DNA of 64,000 nucleotides, from contig KN832874.1 in the NCBI GenBank assembly GCA_000827325.1, forward strand, positions 14,044-78,043, in the 5' to 3' direction. This DNA is from Oidiodendron maius Zn (taxonomy: Eukaryota; Ascomycota; Leotiomycetes; Myxotrichaceae). The notes beneath the pieces were generated by a model that had not been told where the DNA came from, did not search any database, and worked only from the letters and a program-made list of their open reading frames with translations. The position numbers and the translations under genes are program-made. Shown here piece after piece: positions 1-8,077 of this stretch. Each line of letters begins with the position of its first letter. The first letter of the stretch is position 1.

Positions 1-285
1 AAAGTATAAATTAAAATCACAAAAATTTTATTAATTAGTTAAAGTATTATATTAATAAAGATAATTAAACTAAAGAAAGAAAAGCTCTTTAAGTAAATAC
101 TTAATTATATAAATACTATTTAGTCTAGATTAAGTCTAATACTAAAAGGATATAGTAAATTATTAGTAGCTAATCTAGTCTATTAGTTCTAATCTATTAC
201 TAATCCTCTTTAATTACTATATTTAGATTTTAGCTATAAATAGTCTAGTAGAACTATATTACTCTAGTCTAGCTAGACTATTATA
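1..285. repeat. Diverged, RIP-mutated LTR remnant related to the downstream element
   Basis: From about base 38 to 285 this AT-rich sequence aligns with the 295-bp LTRs at 437-731 and 6517-6811, keeping landmarks such as AGAAAAGCTCT and TATAAATACT and ending in the same CTATTATA. The first 40 bases align poorly and include transversions, so it is an older or different member of the family rather than part of the same insertion. Its left end may lie outside the window. Confidence 0.65.
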
Positions 286-431
286 TTTAGCTACTATCTT
301 TAATAAATTAACTTCCTTATTTATTAATAGTTAATTACTTCTAATAAACTATTTTAAGAATATTATTAGTATAATAGAATAAACTTTGGAAATTATAGAT
401 ATAGTATAGAAGTATTAGATACTCTTATACT

Positions 432-436
432 AGATC
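432..436. repeat. Target-site duplication, left copy (AGATC)
   Basis: AGATC sits immediately left of the LTR at 437 and is repeated exactly at 6812-6816, immediately right of the other LTR. A 5-bp duplication is the usual footprint of Ty3/gypsy integrases, and it fixes both ends of the element. Confidence 0.85.
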
Positions 437-731
437 TATAATAGTCTAGCTATTATAAGCTTTATAAAGAGAGATAATAGCTAGTTAAAGTACTATATTA
501 ATAAAGACAATTAAACTAAAGAGAGAAAAGCTCTCTAGATAAATATTTAACTATATAAATACTACTTAGTCTAGATTAAGTTTAATATTAAAGAGATATA
601 ATAAATCACTAGTAGCTACTCTAGTCTATTAGTCTTAATCTATTATAAATCCTTTTTAACTACTATATCTAGATCCTAACTACTACTAGTCTAGTAGAAC
701 TACTTTATTTTAGTTTAGTTAGGCTATTATA
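437..731 (-). repeat. LTR, 3' copy in element orientation (RIP-mutated)
   Basis: This 295-bp copy aligns without gaps to 6517-6811. By hand count about 99 positions differ, and every one is a C-to-T or G-to-A change in this copy. The terminal TG...CA dinucleotides have become TA...TA. Remaining cytosines are mostly in CpT and remaining guanines mostly in ApG. Confidence 0.9.
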
Positions 732-734
732 TTA

Positions 735-745
735 CTCTCTTTTTT
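735..745 (-). other. Polypurine tract of the retrotransposon
   Basis: Read on the minus strand this is AAAAAAGAGAG followed by TAA and then the LTR, the expected place for the plus-strand primer site. It supports the minus orientation given by the reverse transcriptase motif. Confidence 0.6.
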
Positions 746-3256
746 AAGTAATAGATATCTTTAACTATAGTAGTTAAGTAGATATATTAGATCTATTATC
801 TATTAGATTCTTATAGCTATTATATTCCTGCTTCTAAGCTTTAATCTAATTGATTAGTCTATATAGTAGTTCTAGCTATTATAGATATTTAGTATAGAAA
901 TCATATAGTTTATATAGAGAGTATTTAAAATCTAAAGCTAGATAGAAGTTAAAGTCTTTATTATAGCTAATCTAAATAGTCTAGTATAGTAGCTTACTCT
1001 ATAAGAGCTTAATAGCTAGTATCTTATCTACTTTATATTTAATATTATCTATAATATATATAAGCTTTAGCTTTAGGTTATATTACTCTAATAAAGGATT
1101 ATCTACTACTTTATATAGCTAGTCTATATAGAAAACATTATATATTTTAATAGAGTCTAGTAGCTTTAGTTAATAAGAGTAGTTTATCTTCCTTAAAATC
1201 TTAAAAGAGCTCTTATTCTAGTTATCTAGCTTCTTACTAGATTATAGTATATACTAGTCTTTTTAGATAATCTAGACCTTATCCTTTATATTAAAGTTAA
1301 AGATCTATTAGTATAGATTAATATTATACTCTTTCTTATATTAAGCCTTTTTAATAGTTTCTTTATTCTTATTAAGAGCCTTTTCTATATAAATAACAAT
1401 ATCCTTAATATATTCCTAGCTAAGCTATAGTATAATATTAGCTAATACTAGCTATAGTAAAGTTTAGTTAAAGGAGGTTTAGAGTAGATAGTTATTCTAG
1501 ACTTTATATAGAGATAAGCTATTAAAACTACTATAAAATAGAGTTAATTAAGTATAGTTAATTATTAATAGATAGTCTAACTAGTTATTCTAGTAATAGC
1601 TTATAAAAGAATATAGATATAAATTATTATATTAGTTAATAATTTTAGTTTAACTATTTATCTATAAGTAATTAATAGTTAATAGCTTATACTTAATCTT
1701 TAATATATAGTAAAAAGCAGTCTAAAACTCTAATATAAACTAGAGACCTTAGTCTAAGACTATTAAATTAAAGGCTTTATAGTATTAGTAAATATATTAG
1801 ATAAATAGCTAGACTAAGTCTTTAGTATTTATAGTCTTAAAGTAAGAGATAGATATTATCTGCTTAATAAACTAGTTAACTATAACTAGTATAATATTAA
1901 ACCTCTTTTTATCTAATAGAAAACTCTTAAAGTCTATTAATATATCCCTTTAGAGTTTATCTAATATTAATAAAGGGTATAATAAGCTAGAGGTTTTATC
2001 TCTAGTTATATAGGATCTATAATAGATATAATAGTTTTATATATACTACTTAATATCTAACTATATATCTAGTTAGTAATAGTATAGTTATAAAAGCTAA
2101 TAAGTCTTATCTTTATCTAGATAGATAATTAATATCTAATTATAAGCTTCTTGAATTAGCTCTATATAGAGATTATCTAAAGTAGTAGAGATAACTAATT
2201 AATCTATATATAATAATAGTCTATCTTTAATAGTATATTTATCTAAAGTAACTAACTTAGCTTATATATAGAGAGCTTCTAGAGACTCTATATCTTTATT
2301 AACTTAAAGTATCTAATTAACTAGATTATTAGATTTATTAAAAGAGTCTTCTTCTTTAATAGATAGTAGATTAATTACTAATATCTTAATATCTAAATCC
2401 TAAAGAACTCTAAAATCTATCTAGTTTTAAGATAAAAAGATATAGGTTTAATATTAAGTTTTAATTCTATCTTAAGTAATAACCTTAATATCTCTCTAGA
2501 TAAATATATCTACTTTCTAGTTCTATTTACTAGACTTATAAGATATAATAAAATAGTATTTAGTTAATACTTTAGTCTAGTAAGCTTAATAGCTAGTTAG
2601 CTACTTTATTAATATAAAGTACTTTAGAGTCTTATAATTAATATAGATTTTAATCTATTTTATAGTCTTTTAGAGTTCTAGATACTATTTAACTAGTAAT
2701 CTAACTATAGCTAGTATTTCCTTATTATATATCTTATAGTTATATTTAGTAGATACTATAGTCTTTAAGAAATAGATAACTAGATACTATTCCTTATTAA
2801 AGTAGAGTTATAATAGAATACTAGTGATTATTCTATCTAATATATCTGTTTTAATTATTAACTTATATTTAAGGCTATAATAGTATAGTACTAATATAGC
2901 TATAAGTTATAGCTTTAGCTTCTTAAAAGCCTTCTAGTATTACTTATTAAATATAAATAGAATATTAGTCTTTATAAGTTAGATTAGAGATTTAGTAATC
3001 CTTCTATAGTTCTAGATAAAGTACTTATAAAAGTTATAAAAGTCTAGAAATAACTAGATTCCCTTTATAATAATAGAAATAGTCTAGTTAATTACTATAG
3101 AGACCTTTTTTAGATTAACTTTAATACTATTTATAATAATAATAAAGTCTAGATATTTAGTATACTTAACTCTAAATTTATATTTCTTTAGATTAGCTTA
3201 TAAGTCTATATCTCTTAGCTACTATAAGACCTTTTTAATATACTCTTTATATTCTA

Positions 3257-3299
3257 ATTTATTCTTAGAGTAAATAAGGATATTATCTAGATAAATAGT
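3257..3299 (-). pseudogene. Reverse transcriptase active-site remnant (Ty3/gypsy)
   Basis: The minus-strand translation TIYLDNILIYSKNKL matches the YLDDILIYSK block of Ty3/gypsy reverse transcriptases. The aspartate pair reads Asp-Asn, an expected RIP outcome (GAT to AAT). Flanking frames contain many stops, so this is a relic. Confidence 0.8.
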
Positions 3300-6200
3300 A
3301 TAGAAATTATCTAGATAATTAAACAGGATATTATTTATATACTATTAATATATTATTAGTCTATTAATAAGGCTAAAAGAGAGGACTTTATACTTATATA
3401 AGCTATAATAAGTCTAGAAGGTAATTAGCTCTTTAGACTTAAAGTCTATTTAGATCTAATTAAAAGTCTAATAGATATCTAGCTTAGTATAGAGTCTAGT
3501 ATAACTAATCTAGTTTAGTAACTTATTAATTAATAGAAGAAGATACTAATCCTTATAAGTTATTTAGTTTAAGTTCTAGAAATTAATATAAAGATATAGA
3601 TATCTATTAACTTTATAGATAAAGAGGATTAGTATAGTAAAGGAGGCCTAACTAGACTCTATAAAACCCTTATAAAGGTTCTTGATAAGATAGCACTTAA
3701 CTTTCTCTAGCTCCTCTATAGTTATATAATATAATAGTCTAAAATCTAGATTATTAGACTCTATTAAATTAATCCTATAATTATAAAGCTAGTTAAGAGA
3801 TAATATATCTAATGCTTCTTTAGAAAAAATATCCTAGAATTCTTTATAAGCTACTAGTAATAGTAGTTCTTATAGTATAATAGACTCTAACTAGCTAATT
3901 TAATAGAGGTTAATAGTCTAGCTACTATTATCTATAAGGCTTTAGTCCTTCTAATCTTAGATTAACTAGTTAATCTTATATAGACTAGTTAAAAAGAGTT
4001 TACTATTCTCTTAATATAGATATAAATAAAAACTATTTACTAAAATAGTATTAATATCTATCTAATAGAGTCTTTTAGCCTTAATAGACTAGTAGAGCTT
4101 CTTTTAATAAAGGAGATTAAAGGTTTACTATTAGTCTAAAAGGTTATTATTTATCTTTTATAAGTAGTTCTAGAGTTCTAGTTTAAAGGAGACTTTAGGT
4201 TAAAGCTTCTACTTTAACTTTAGTTAAAGAATTGATTTAATCTAGCTATTAAAGGAAATTAAAGTAATCTCTATATTCTTATAGTTTAAGTTACTTCTTT
4301 AATCTATAGTAGTAAAGGTCTAGTCTCTATAATCTATATCCTTTTAGTAGCTAAAAGCCTTTAAAGCTAGAATTAGATTCTAGTAGTTCTACTAGATTTC
4401 CTTAGTTATTAAGTAGCTAGATAGTAACTTAACTAGCTAGACTAAGTAGTATTACTAGTAATCTAGTAAGATATTAAAATAGACTAGCTACTTCTATCTA
4501 ATTATTATATTATAGCTTTCTAAATCTAATATTAAAAGGGGTATATTATACTAGTAATACTAGTTAATAGTTAGATATAACTATATATAATAGATAACTA
4601 GTCTCTCTAGCTAGCTATTATATCCTTTAATCTAGATAAGACTAAATAGTTAGATAGTTTTAATATTAAAGAATCTAGCTAGATTAATTATAAAGAGTAT
4701 ATTAATAAATATAAATCTATTTACTCTAGAGTTAATAAGAGTATATAAGATAATACTAGTTCTATTAGTTAATAATATATAGACTATAATAAAGTACTAT
4801 CTTTCTATAAGACTTCTTAAGTTAATTCCCTATAAATTAACCTCTAGAGAGTCTAGACTAGAGTCTTTATCTAGATCTTCTCTTTTTCTAAGTCTATATT
4901 AGTAACTCTATCTCTATAAATAGTATTCTTATAGACTTCTAGATCTTTAGCTTTATTATTTTCAATATCTTTAATATTAGCTATTTAGTCTAGTAGCTTA
5001 TAGTCTATATATAGATAGCTAATCCCTCTATAATTAAAGTATCTAGTCTACTAGTATAGCTAGAATAGTAATATAACTAGCTAGAGATTAATTAGCTTAG
5101 ACTAAAGTAGCTAGCTTAAAGCTAGTAGTAGTATACTATTTATTTAATTAAGTAGCTTTAGAAGTTAAAGATATCTAATAGCTAGATAGATAGAAAGTAG
5201 CTATATAGTAGCTTTAGTCTCTTAGTCCTTTATAATCTAGCTATTAAAGTATTATAGATTAATATTAATATAGTCTAGACAATTATAAAGCTTCTAGAAA
5301 TCGCTATCTAGATTATACTTAGTAGCTAGAATATATAACTAAAAAGGAGCTATAATCTTCTTATATAAGTTATTAAAATAGTCTATCTTTAGGATCTAGT
5401 CTCTATTAACTAGCTAGAGGAATTATATCTTAAAGTTCTAGAAAAACTCTTTATCCTTTATTTTTAGTTTTCTATATTTAGTATAGGAGTCTTCCTTATA
5501 GTATTAGTTATAATAGATATTATTAAAGGCTATTAGTATCTTAGTATAGTTAAGGTAAAGGTTATTATTCTCTATATTACTAGTATATTAAAGGTATAAA
5601 TACTACTAAGCCTCTCCTTCTATATAATTAAAGATAAAGGACTAGATCTTCTAATTACTATTAAATTAAAAGCTATTAATTTGGAGTTTATCTATAACTT
5701 GCTCCTTCTAGACTTAATACTTAATAGTTCTATCCTTCTTTCTAGAGAACTAAAGAGAGTCTTTATACTTTAGTTTATATTAAACTATATACTAGGATTT
5801 AGATCTAGTTATTAGTTCTAGGGAAACTTAGGGAGGAGTCAGGTTTTAGAGTAGCTAGACAACTATAGCCTCTAGCTTTTTAATCTGCTTCTAGATAGTT
5901 TTAGCCTCTATTTAACTCTTGACTTAGGTATACTAGAGAGCTAAAAGGTTAGTATACTAGTCTAGGCTCTTAAAGGGTTCCTAATTAAGGGGGTCGCTTT
6001 CAAAAGGGGCTAGATACTAAATGGATCCTTAGGGTTCAGGAGGTCTATAAGAGGTATCCCTTGCTTTACCCTTGTCTTTAGCTAGAGGGGCTATATTAGT
6101 AGTCTTGAATTCGGAGGTTAGGCTTGGAGTATTGAATCAGTTATATAGTTATATTACAGGTATATCCTGATTCCTGTTACTGCAGGCCATTAGAGGCAGT

Positions 6201-6516
6201 ATTCTTGCCGGGATATATTTGCCAGTTATATAGGCGTATATTTAAGGGTTGAAGAGTATAAGAGGTTTAATAGGTAAGTAGTAAGTGCAAACAGGCTCGA
6301 TAAACACTGGTTCTGATTAAATGCTGGCTTCTGAGGCTTCTCTAGCTGCCTTTGCTTTGATAGCTTGTTTTATGACTGTATAGTTGGAGCTGGTGATATC
6401 AAAGGTATAGAAGGGCTACAGATCGACTGAATCTGGTAGCTCTTAGCAAGCAGCAGTAGTATTTAACCTCGACTAACTACAAGGGCAAAGAAGAAGAAGA
6501 GTGAGTTTAATTGTAA

Positions 6517-6811
6517 TGTAATAGCCTGGCTACTATAAGCTTCACGAAGGGAGGCAGTGGCCAGTTAAGGTGCTGTATTGACGAAGACAATTAAACTAAG
6601 GAGAGAAAAGCTCTCTGGGCAAACGCTCAACTGTATAAATACTGCTCGGCCCGGATTAAGCCTAGTGCCGAGGGGACGTAGCGAATCGCTGGCGGCCGCT
6701 CCGGCCTGCTAGTCCTAATCCGTCACGAATCCTCCTCAACCACCACGTCCGGATCCTGGCCGCTGCCAGCCTGGCAGAACCACCCCGTCCTAGCCTGGCT
6801 GGGCCGTCACA
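6517..6811 (-). repeat. LTR, 5' copy in element orientation (not RIP-mutated)
   Basis: This copy starts TGTAATAGCC and ends GGGCCGTCACA on the plus strand, so it keeps the canonical TG...CA ends. It is GC-rich (GCGGCCGCTCCGGCC inside) and contains TATAAATACTG as a possible promoter TATA element. On the minus strand it would be the promoter LTR. Its contrast with the partner copy is discussed in the findings. Confidence 0.9.
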
Positions 6812-6816
6812 AGATC
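6812..6816. repeat. Target-site duplication, right copy (AGATC)
   Basis: Exact match to 432-436, directly abutting the CACA end of the LTR. Confidence 0.85.
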
Positions 6817-7059
6817 CCTGCTCTAAGGATACTATTAGGACCAAGGCTTGTAGGCTGCGCACTTTGGGTCAGGTACCCGATGGGTTTTCTAGGCATTCCT
6901 AGATTGAGAATTGAAGTCGAGCAAAAGAAACAATAACTATTTTTAGATCTCGGACAAGGCACCCTTGCGATTCTGCTGAAGCGAGTTCGCTGGTAAACCG
7001 CTGGCTACTCTGGCCAGGTTCGTCACAACGATGAGTTCAAGGTCGTTTAGATATATAGG

Positions 7060-7521
7060 AATCATTGATCGGTCATGATAAAGAGGTCAAGCCAAAGGGC
7101 AATGCTATAACTCAAAAATACTATACTGAGTGCCTATTACCAGTATATATTCACGCTATCCAAGAAACTCGAATACGCGACCCAAAAGCTATGGGTTTTT
7201 CGAGAGGATAATGATCCATCTCATGGTACAAGGAAACTAGGCCTAGCGCACCATTTAAAAGAGGCCAATTGGATCAATACTTTGATTCATCCTGCTCAAT
7301 CGCCTGATCTAAACCCTGTAGAGGCATGCTGGAATATTCTAAAGCTTAGAGTCCGTCGGCGTACTTGGAGATCAATCGAGGCGCTAAAGGAGGTACTACA
7401 AGATGAATGGAGTGGAGTAAAATCATAATGTTAGAAGTCCGTGCGCGTATTGCAGAGATGCCTGACCAATGTAAAAGACTAGTAGAATCAGGTGGAGAGC
7501 CTATTAAGAGTAATTTGTGGT
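7060..7521 (+). pseudogene. Tc1/mariner-family transposase, C-terminal fragment
   Basis: One plus frame contains FREDNDPSHGTRK, then HPAQSPDLNPVEACWNILK and a helical tail. These are the second Asp block and the SPDLNPxE third acidic block of DDE transposases of the Tc1/mariner superfamily. After a frame change the sequence VRARIAEMPDQCKRLVESGG runs to SNLW and a stop near 7521, the usual C-terminus of fungal copies. Upstream pieces such as KGNAITQKYYTECLLPVY lie in a third frame. The N-terminal DNA-binding part is missing, and I see no clear left terminal inverted repeat. It is a frameshifted, 5'-truncated relic beside the retrotransposon. Confidence 0.75.
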
Positions 7522-7902
7522 AAATGTAGAGTAAAAAATCAGACATTTTGTCCCTATTTTCAGCATTTCGGCTGAATTTCAGCTGTCCTATGAGATTTGA
7601 CACCCCTGGTGAAAGTGTTGTTAGCGCGTCGGTTGCGCTATCCTATGCTCTCGCTACCATCGGTTCTCCTAGTCGAGGCCTAATGCCATCACTATATTCC
7701 AATTCCCTATCTACTATAGATAAAATATAGGGGAAAAAAATAAATAGTAAGTAGAGGGTCAAGACTTTAGAGTATAAAATGAAGATACAATCTTTTCAAT
7801 TGAAAGTAGTCAGAAGGAAACAAGGAATATCGGCTACAAAGAGTTAGGGTGATAGAATGCTTATATAGTATGATAAGGAGATTAGTCCTAACAAAAACGG
7901 GT

Positions 7903-7953
7903 TCCATGGCCCAGTTGGAAAGGCGCTCCACAAGAGTGTCCTCTTAACGAAAA
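7903..7953 (+). pseudogene. tRNA-like 5' fragment (A box only)
   Basis: The sequence contains ATGGCCCAGTTGG followed by AAAGGCGCTCC, which resembles the D-arm and internal A box of several fungal tRNAs. No pairing anticodon stem or B box follows before the next tRNA-like segment begins. The isotype cannot be assigned. Confidence 0.3.
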
Positions 7954-8077
7954 GGTTGCTTAGCTCAGTTGGCACGTGACCCACCAATTCTCTCAGCGAA
8001 TTAAACTAATACCCTCTCTAGGTTAGAGCGTGGTGCTAATAACGCCAAGGTCGCGAGTTCGGTAAGTTTAGAGCAAT
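7954..8077 (+). pseudogene. tRNA-Ile(AAT)-like sequence interrupted in the D-loop
   Basis: GGTTGCTTAGCTCAGTTGG (7954-7972) is an acceptor strand plus D-arm, and 8022-8062 continues as TTAGAGCGTGGTGCTAATAACGCC and a variable arm. That gives an anticodon loop CTAATAA (anticodon AAT) between GGTG/GCC-type stems. Between the two parts lie 49 bases (7973-8021) that no tRNA needs. The T-arm starts GCGAGTTCG but its 3' strand (AGTTT) does not pair, and the acceptor end is only partly complementary (AGCAATT). I read it as a dead, interrupted tRNA gene. A tRNA-derived SINE head is another option. Confidence 0.5.

What the first reader, a model, noticed from the sequence alone, without database searches (positions are those of the whole stretch)
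437..6811. One LTR retrotransposon with one RIP-destroyed LTR and one apparently untouched LTR
LTRs are identical at insertion. Here 437-731 and 6517-6811 align over 295 bases with no gaps, and by hand count about 99 positions differ, all C-to-T or G-to-A in the left copy, none the reverse. RIP normally hits both copies of a duplication. The mutation load also falls gradually between about 5800 and 6500 rather than ending at the LTR. Possible explanations are RIP that stops at a boundary, gene conversion of the right LTR from an active element, or re-insertion/recombination. The intact copy is the one that would drive transcription in the element orientation.
Basis: partly seen in the sequence, partly recalled or inferred. 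Interest (0 to 1): 0.75.

Follow-up and report, generated by a model that had tools for sequence, protein, structure and literature searches.

The report
Retrotransposon mutated everywhere except one end
A fungal jumping gene has been riddled with C-to-T mutations by what looks like the fungus's own genome defence, but the damage fades out over the last kilobase next to ordinary DNA, so one of its two originally identical ends is almost untouched; several sister copies fade at their ends in the same way.

Summary
The LTRs at 437-731 and 6517-6811 align without gaps and differ at 99 of 295 positions, all C-to-T or G-to-A in the left copy. They belong to one insertion: a 5-bp target duplication flanks it, as in 7 of 7 full-length family copies fetched, and both LTRs differ from five identical unmutated family LTRs by RIP-type changes only (101 left, 2 right). 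The element is Ty3/gypsy-like on the minus strand, so the spared right LTR is the 5' LTR. CpA/CpG-type sites are near-saturated to about 5.8 kb, then decline smoothly to zero at the right LTR's inner edge. A smooth decline fits better than one step, and the scarcity of weak-context hits argues against gene-conversion patchwork. Other copies taper too: LTR load is below interior load at 16 of 17 ends measured, but some ends fit poorly. Best reading: RIP dose falls within about 1 kb of a border with unmutated, non-family DNA, while the left end, beside another mutated family LTR, is fully exposed. The locus itself is an ordinary RIPped element; the edge profile is moderately interesting.

The parts
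437..731 (-). left LTR = 3' LTR of the element; heavily mutated
   Evidence: 101 RIP-type changes of 169 C+G and no other change against five identical unmutated family LTRs
6517..6811 (-). right LTR = 5' LTR; nearly unmutated
   Evidence: two RIP-type changes in the first six bases, none in the other 289
432..436 (.). left copy of the 5-bp target duplication AGATC
   Evidence: 7 of 7 full-length copies fetched have a 5-bp duplication
6812..6816 (.). right copy of the target duplication AGATC
732..6516 (-). internal region of a Ty3/gypsy-like element
   Evidence: full-length alignment with six other copies; RT, RNase H and integrase domains in the C14 copy
3144..3527 (-). reverse-transcriptase relic with 10 in-frame stops
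   Evidence: PF00078 match C5:17187-17570 minus strand
5800..6522 (.). taper zone: mutation load falls from near saturation to zero
29..287 (.). third LTR of the same family, heavily mutated, ending about 150 bp left of the element; same orientation as the left LTR
   Evidence: family D1; the DNA left of the window reads N
6817..8016 (.). right flank without family homology or RIP signature in its first 500 bp
   Evidence: GC 0.44, index (CpA+TpG)/(ApC+GpT) 1.36, no family homology; 14 other partial matches elsewhere, none covering it

Best explanation
One recent insertion of a Ty3/gypsy-like retrotransposon, hit by RIP-type C-to-T mutation whose dose depends on position. Inside repeated DNA, which here includes the left LTR because another family LTR ends about 150 bp further left, target sites are saturated. 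Over about the last kilobase before the border with unmutated, non-family DNA the dose falls smoothly to zero, so the 295-bp LTR at that border is spared. Shown: one insertion, the RIP-type signature, the smooth decline, declines at ends of several other copies, and that the same LTR sequence is fully mutable on the left. Inferred: that RIP is the process, and that the decline comes from how it works near the edge of recognised homology or of the heterochromatin it acts through.
For: 99 of 99 LTR differences are RIP-type in one direction. 5-bp target duplication here and in the six other full-length copies fetched. CpA/CpG-type sites 966 of 984 mutated in 437-5000, then 0.77, 0.53, 0.43, 0.15, 0.04 in the last five bins. 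Logistic log-likelihood -216.2 (4 parameters) against -241.0 for one step (3) and -220.6 for two steps (5). CpC/CpT hits in 5801-6522 are 11 of 219; the per-bin expectations sum to about 41 for patchwork and 20 for a declining dose. LTR load below interior load at 16 of 17 ends; strong tapers at C28 84102, C41, and both ends of the C3 copy. Two RID-like and one DIM-2-sized methyltransferase loci in the genome.
Against: The rule is not clean. C41 and C3-left taper beside RIP-like AT-rich DNA; C28 78016 hardly tapers (ratio 0.81) beside a spacer without family homology; C1 4362664 does not taper (1.06) and C11 22275 hardly (0.82) beside non-family DNA; C1 4368751 is not monotonic. Four C15 LTRs beside non-family RIP-like DNA are 63 to 67 of 72 mutated. 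The C14 copy lies almost unmutated between RIP-like flanks. The flank classes (6 against 11 ends, p 0.020) were set after seeing the profiles, the ends are not independent, and three of the six 'unmutated' flanks have raised TpA/ApT (1.68-1.83). In 5801-6522 the weak-context hits are fewer than even the declining-dose model expects.
Confidence: 0.75

Rival explanations
1. Gene conversion: the whole element was RIPped and its right end was later overwritten from an unmutated copy.
For: Unmutated, identical family LTRs exist at five contig ends, and the last 289 bases of the right LTR equal them. Conversion is offered for disparate LTR pairs in Podospora (PMC10787394, passages).
Against: The decline is smooth, weak-context hits are too few for a patchwork, the 163 bases before the LTR carry 11 RIP-type differences and 2 transversions against the contig-end copy C6, and several ends on other contigs taper too, which would need many separate terminal conversions.
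Confidence: 0.1
2. Assembly artefact: the right LTR in the assembly comes from another, unmutated copy.
For: Five contigs end inside identical unmutated copies, so this family does break the assembly. No reads were available.
Against: The target duplication matches across the element, the taper begins several hundred bases before the LTR in copy-specific sequence, and similar tapers exist on other contigs.
Confidence: 0.07
3. Two different insertions supply the two LTRs (re-insertion or recombination between elements).
For: Another family LTR lies about 150 bp to the left, so the area is nested.
Against: Matching 5-bp duplication, a full-length alignment with six other copies, and no non-RIP difference between the LTRs.
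Confidence: 0.03
4. Same taper, but set by the edge of heterochromatin rather than the edge of sequence homology.
For: Ends facing flanks without a strong RIP index have lower LTR-to-interior ratios (median 0.30 of 6 ends) than ends facing RIPped flanks (median 0.79 of 11). A DIM-2-sized methyltransferase frame is present.
Against: C41 and C3-left taper although their flanks are RIP-like and AT-rich. No chromatin data.
Confidence: 0.35

Closest known systems
Repeat-induced point mutation (RIP) of Neurospora crassa and other Ascomycota
   Same: One-directional C:G-to-T:A change in repeated DNA with dinucleotide preference; RID-like and DIM-2-sized methyltransferase loci present
   Different: CpG is hit nearly as often as CpA in the nine copies compared, unlike the CpA dominance recalled for N. 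crassa; the load falls inside the repeat, whereas reports usually describe leakage outwards (passages)
RIP along LTR elements of Zymoseptoria tritici (PMC10294615, passages)
   Same: CG:TA change in class I elements, no leakage into the flanks
   Different: There the most distal windows of LTR elements receive the most new mutations; here the ends are the least mutated
Non-tandem rDNA repeats of Stagonospora nodorum (PMC2621366, passages)
   Same: Heavily RIPped 'especially in the central regions'
   Different: rDNA fragments, no LTRs; another family there had slightly more RIP at its ends
crapaud LTR element of Podospora (PMC10787394, section 11 and passages)
   Same: LTR family with RIPped and un-RIPped copies; solo LTRs mostly unmutated
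   Different: LTR GC bimodal per copy there, and disparate LTR pairs ascribed to conversion or recombination

Membership tests
RIP | only C:G-to-T:A changes, in one direction | tested here: met
   99 of 99 between the LTRs; 101 and 2 RIP-type, 0 other against unmutated LTRs
RIP | dinucleotide preference including CpA | tested here: met
   CpA 0.56-0.91 and CpG 0.51-0.90 against CpT 0.03-0.19 and CpC 0.06-0.31 over nine copies
RIP | acts on repeated DNA, sparing single-copy DNA | tested here: met
   at least 40 scored LTR matches; the right flank has no RIP signature
RIP | both members of a duplication are mutated | tested here: inconclusive
   the six RIPped full-length copies are mutated inside, but the C14 copy and five contig-end ends are not, and this LTR pair is unequal
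RIP | RID-type methyltransferase (EQT in motif VI) | tested here: met
   two loci with PPCQ...EQT; mark as described in passages of PMC6709928; whether the genes are intact was not tested
RIP | occurs before meiosis | not testable with these tools
   needs crosses
Ty3/gypsy LTR retrotransposon | TG...CA LTR ends and 5-bp target duplication | tested here: met
   7 of 7 copies with 5-bp duplication; TG...CA seen in the C14 copy, RIP-type variants of it in mutated LTRs
Ty3/gypsy LTR retrotransposon | domain order RT, RNase H, integrase | tested here: met
   C14 copy: RVT_1, RT_RNaseH, Integrase_H2C2 in that order, each over its cut-off; rve under its cut-off
Ty3/gypsy LTR retrotransposon | primer-binding site | not tested
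   no comparison with tRNA ends made

The most novel reading that the evidence does not exclude
RIP in this fungus has a built-in edge blindness: dose depends on distance from the end of the recognised homologous (or heterochromatic) block and rises over about 1 kb. LTRs of isolated insertions, short and terminal, then sit in a protected shoulder, so promoters survive while bodies are destroyed, and nesting among other copies exposes them. The profile could serve as a sequence-only ruler for the reach of homology recognition.
Probability: 0.4. Interest if true: 0.55.

Novelty: new member of a known kind. Interest (0 to 1): 0.36.

Why it matters
If general, unequal LTR damage should not be read straight away as gene conversion or a bad assembly, and LTR-LTR divergence cannot date RIPped elements: here a pair differs at a third of its positions without one non-RIP change. 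A dose that falls smoothly toward the repeat border would give a sequence-level measure of how far homology recognition or heterochromatin reaches, and would leave near-intact LTR promoters beside neighbouring genes. It contrasts with the profile reported for Zymoseptoria tritici, where LTR ends take the most new mutations.

Tried and rejected
Two-insertion and re-insertion readings: rejected on the target duplication and the absence of non-RIP differences. Gene conversion: tested by step against smooth likelihoods and by the CpC/CpT counts; disfavoured. 'RIP-resistant sequence': rejected, since the same LTR is saturated on the left (70 of 72 CpA/CpG-type sites) and in four C15 LTRs (63-67 of 72, partly subfamily differences). 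Selection against damage reaching neighbouring genes was considered and not tested. The homology-edge and chromatin-edge variants could not be separated.

Rows dropped before counts: the 17 ends leave out both ends of the C14 copy (hardly RIPped), four contig-end copies (unmutated, no interior), and the four C15 ends (only LTR and outer flank fetched). Search counts in G000 are lower bounds (40 of 115 and 40 of 87 candidates scored). The step and logistic fits used the window copy alone; for the window's right end the interior zone (751-1500) lies partly in the taper.

Literature: seven library searches listed no paper that I recognised as describing an inward RIP taper at LTR ends. The library holds open-licence PMC papers only, and I read passages, or one section in one case, of 13 papers, so this is no claim that none exists. 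Papers giving nothing direct on the question: PMC12543289, PMC4858203, PMC7296669, PMC3562529, PMC10691877, PMC9910759, PMC7882544 (passages) and PMC11969663 (term counts, all zero).

Full report
OBSERVATION. The LTRs at 437-731 and 6517-6811 are 295 bases each and align without gaps. They differ at 99 positions, 52 C-to-T and 47 G-to-A from right to left, with no reverse change and no transversion. In the left LTR CpA (31 of 32) and CpG (37 of 38) sites are almost all changed, CpC (16 of 50) and CpT (15 of 47) about a third. GC is 0.18-0.27 in the 250-base bins up to 5750 and 0.34, 0.40, 0.41 and 0.51 in the next four.

ONE INSERTION. The element is bracketed by AGATC at 432-436 and 6812-6816. 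All seven full-length copies that I fetched have a matching 5-bp duplication, seven different ones; two of them (C3, C28) lie in simple-sequence flanks where the match weighs less. AGATC occurs 8 times in bases 1-5800. Five LTRs at contig ends (C6, C7, C9, C12, C16) are identical over the 292-295 bases compared. Against the C6 one the window's left LTR has 101 RIP-type changes of 169 C+G and nothing else, and the right LTR has two RIP-type changes within its first six bases and nothing else. Over the whole element the window copy differs from the C3 copy by 2 transversions in 6374 positions, and from copies of other subfamilies by up to 30. By ordinary substitution the insertion is recent; nearly all its divergence is RIP-type.

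WHAT IT IS. The least mutated full-length copy (C14, L034, GC 0.506) carries RVT_1, RT_RNaseH and Integrase_H2C2 matches in that order on its plus strand, with the integrase core under its cut-off. This is the order of Ty3/gypsy elements (recalled). That copy is not intact either: its reverse-transcriptase match has 3 in-frame stops. In the window the reverse-transcriptase relic is on the minus strand at 3144-3527 with 10 stops, and the bases next to the left LTR look like a mutated purine tract such as the one at the start of contig C9 (my reading). Whatever it could still transcribe is a destroyed body.

THE TAPER. I aligned the window copy, six other full-length copies and nine fragments, and at each column where some copy keeps C (or G), the rest having only T (or A), counted whether the window is changed. 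CpA/CpG-type sites are 966 of 984 mutated in 437-5000, stay near saturation to about 5800, and fall in the last five 200-column bins to 0.77, 0.53, 0.43, 0.15 and 0.04. A logistic decline (midpoint 6233, scale 182 bp) has log-likelihood -216.2, one step -241.0, two steps -220.6. The weak contexts CpC/CpT drop earlier: 11 of 219 in 5801-6522 against 429 of 1400 in 437-5000. Summing the per-bin expectations, a patchwork of fully mutated and fully restored tracts would give about 41, a declining dose about 20. The count is below both but much nearer the second. This speaks against gene conversion over the taper; a short conversion confined to the last 289 bases is not excluded.

OTHER COPIES. LTR load against load 751-1500 bp inside is 0.06/0.91 at window right, 0.10/0.69 at C28 84102, 0.11/0.61 at C41, 0.11/0.64 at C3 right, 0.30/0.77 at C3 left, 0.38/0.89 at C28 77250, 0.34/0.56 at C11 28362, 0.52/0.79 at C1 4368751, 0.52/0.73 and 0.62/0.83 at the two ends of the C42 copy, 0.44/0.56 at C1 4330001, 0.65/0.78 at C42 26780, 0.69/0.86 at C28 78016, 0.43/0.52 at C11 22275, 0.92/0.94 at C42 24871, 0.97/0.98 at window left and 0.76/0.72 at C1 4362664. 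In 16 of 17 ends the LTR load is the lower one, though at several only slightly. Six ends face flanks with a (CpA+TpG)/(ApC+GpT) index of 0.75 or more (median ratio 0.30), eleven face flanks at 0.60 or less (median 0.79), p 0.020. I set these classes after seeing the profiles, ends of one element are not independent, two of the six share one spacer, and three of the six flanks have raised TpA/ApT, so the p-value is only indicative. Against a simple rule: C41 and C3-left taper beside RIP-like AT-rich DNA; C28 78016, C11 22275 and C1 4362664 hardly or do not taper beside non-family DNA; four C15 LTRs beside RIP-like non-family DNA are 63 to 67 of 72 mutated; and the C14 copy lies almost unmutated between RIP-like flanks.

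WHY THE LEFT LTR IS NOT SPARED. About 150 bp to its left ends another LTR of the same family, itself heavily mutated (29-287). What lies left of the window is withheld. The left LTR thus lies among family repeats, while the right LTR borders 500 bp with GC 0.44, no family homology and a normal index of 1.36. That flank is not wholly unique: it holds a mariner-like relic with 65-73% identical relatives, one 86% match of about 215 bases, and short pieces found elsewhere. The LTR sequence itself is not resistant, since it is saturated on the left. No leakage into the right flank is visible.

MECHANISM. Shown: one insertion, RIP-type mutation, a smooth decline near one end, and declines at several ends on other contigs. 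Inferred: that dose is limited near the end of recognised homology, or near the edge of the heterochromatin through which the mutation acts. C41 and C3-left favour the homology edge, the flank effect favours the chromatin edge, and I cannot separate them. The genome has two loci with the PPCQ...EQT arrangement of RID-like methyltransferases, a methyltransferase in a 1437-residue open frame (DIM-2-sized, recalled) and a fourth partial match. EQT as the RID mark was seen in passages of PMC6709928. Whether these genes are intact was not tested.

COMPARISON. RIP is the closest known process, and the features that could be tested mostly fit (see the membership test). Two departures: CpG is hit nearly as often as CpA in the nine copies compared, unlike the CpA dominance recalled for N. 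crassa; and damage fades inside the repeat. Passages of PMC10294615 say that in Zymoseptoria tritici the distal windows of LTR elements take the most new RIP mutations, the opposite profile. Passages of PMC2621366 report non-tandem rDNA repeats mutated 'especially in the central regions' and a slight excess at the ends for another family. PMC10787394 (section 11 and passages) reports mostly unmutated solo LTRs and ascribes disparate LTR pairs to conversion or recombination. Seven library searches listed nothing that I recognised as an inward taper at LTR ends; much of the older Neurospora work is probably not in that library.

VERDICT. The locus is an ordinary RIPped retrotransposon seen at an edge. 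The edge profile, shared by several copies but not all, is the more interesting part and deserves a genome-wide test.

Noticed in passing
window 7111-7428 (+): An open stretch that reads like the C-terminal part of a Tc1/mariner-type transposase (motif recalled, no family scan succeeded), in the unmutated right flank; relatives 65-73% identical elsewhere in the genome.
   Followed up: partly
contig ends C6, C7, C9, C12, C16 of G000 (L041-L045): Five contigs begin or end in identical unmutated LTRs of this family, in four cases with a piece of the adjoining element: the assembly breaks at near-identical copies, so the family has recent unmutated members.
   Followed up: partly
L034 (C14:1160000-1167500): A full-length copy with GC about 0.5 lies almost unmutated between RIP-like AT-rich flanks.
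   Followed up: no
nine RIPped copies against L034: Mutation prefers CpA and CpG about equally, then CpC, then CpT.
   Followed up: partly
L061 (C15:653300-654500) and L062 (C7:1979000-1980300): Two separate RID-like methyltransferase loci (PPCQ...EQT) in one genome.
   Followed up: no
C28:77250-78310 (L022, L035): Two family copies face each other 5' end to 5' end across a 473-base spacer; one end tapers clearly (0.38/0.89), the other little (0.69/0.86).
   Followed up: no
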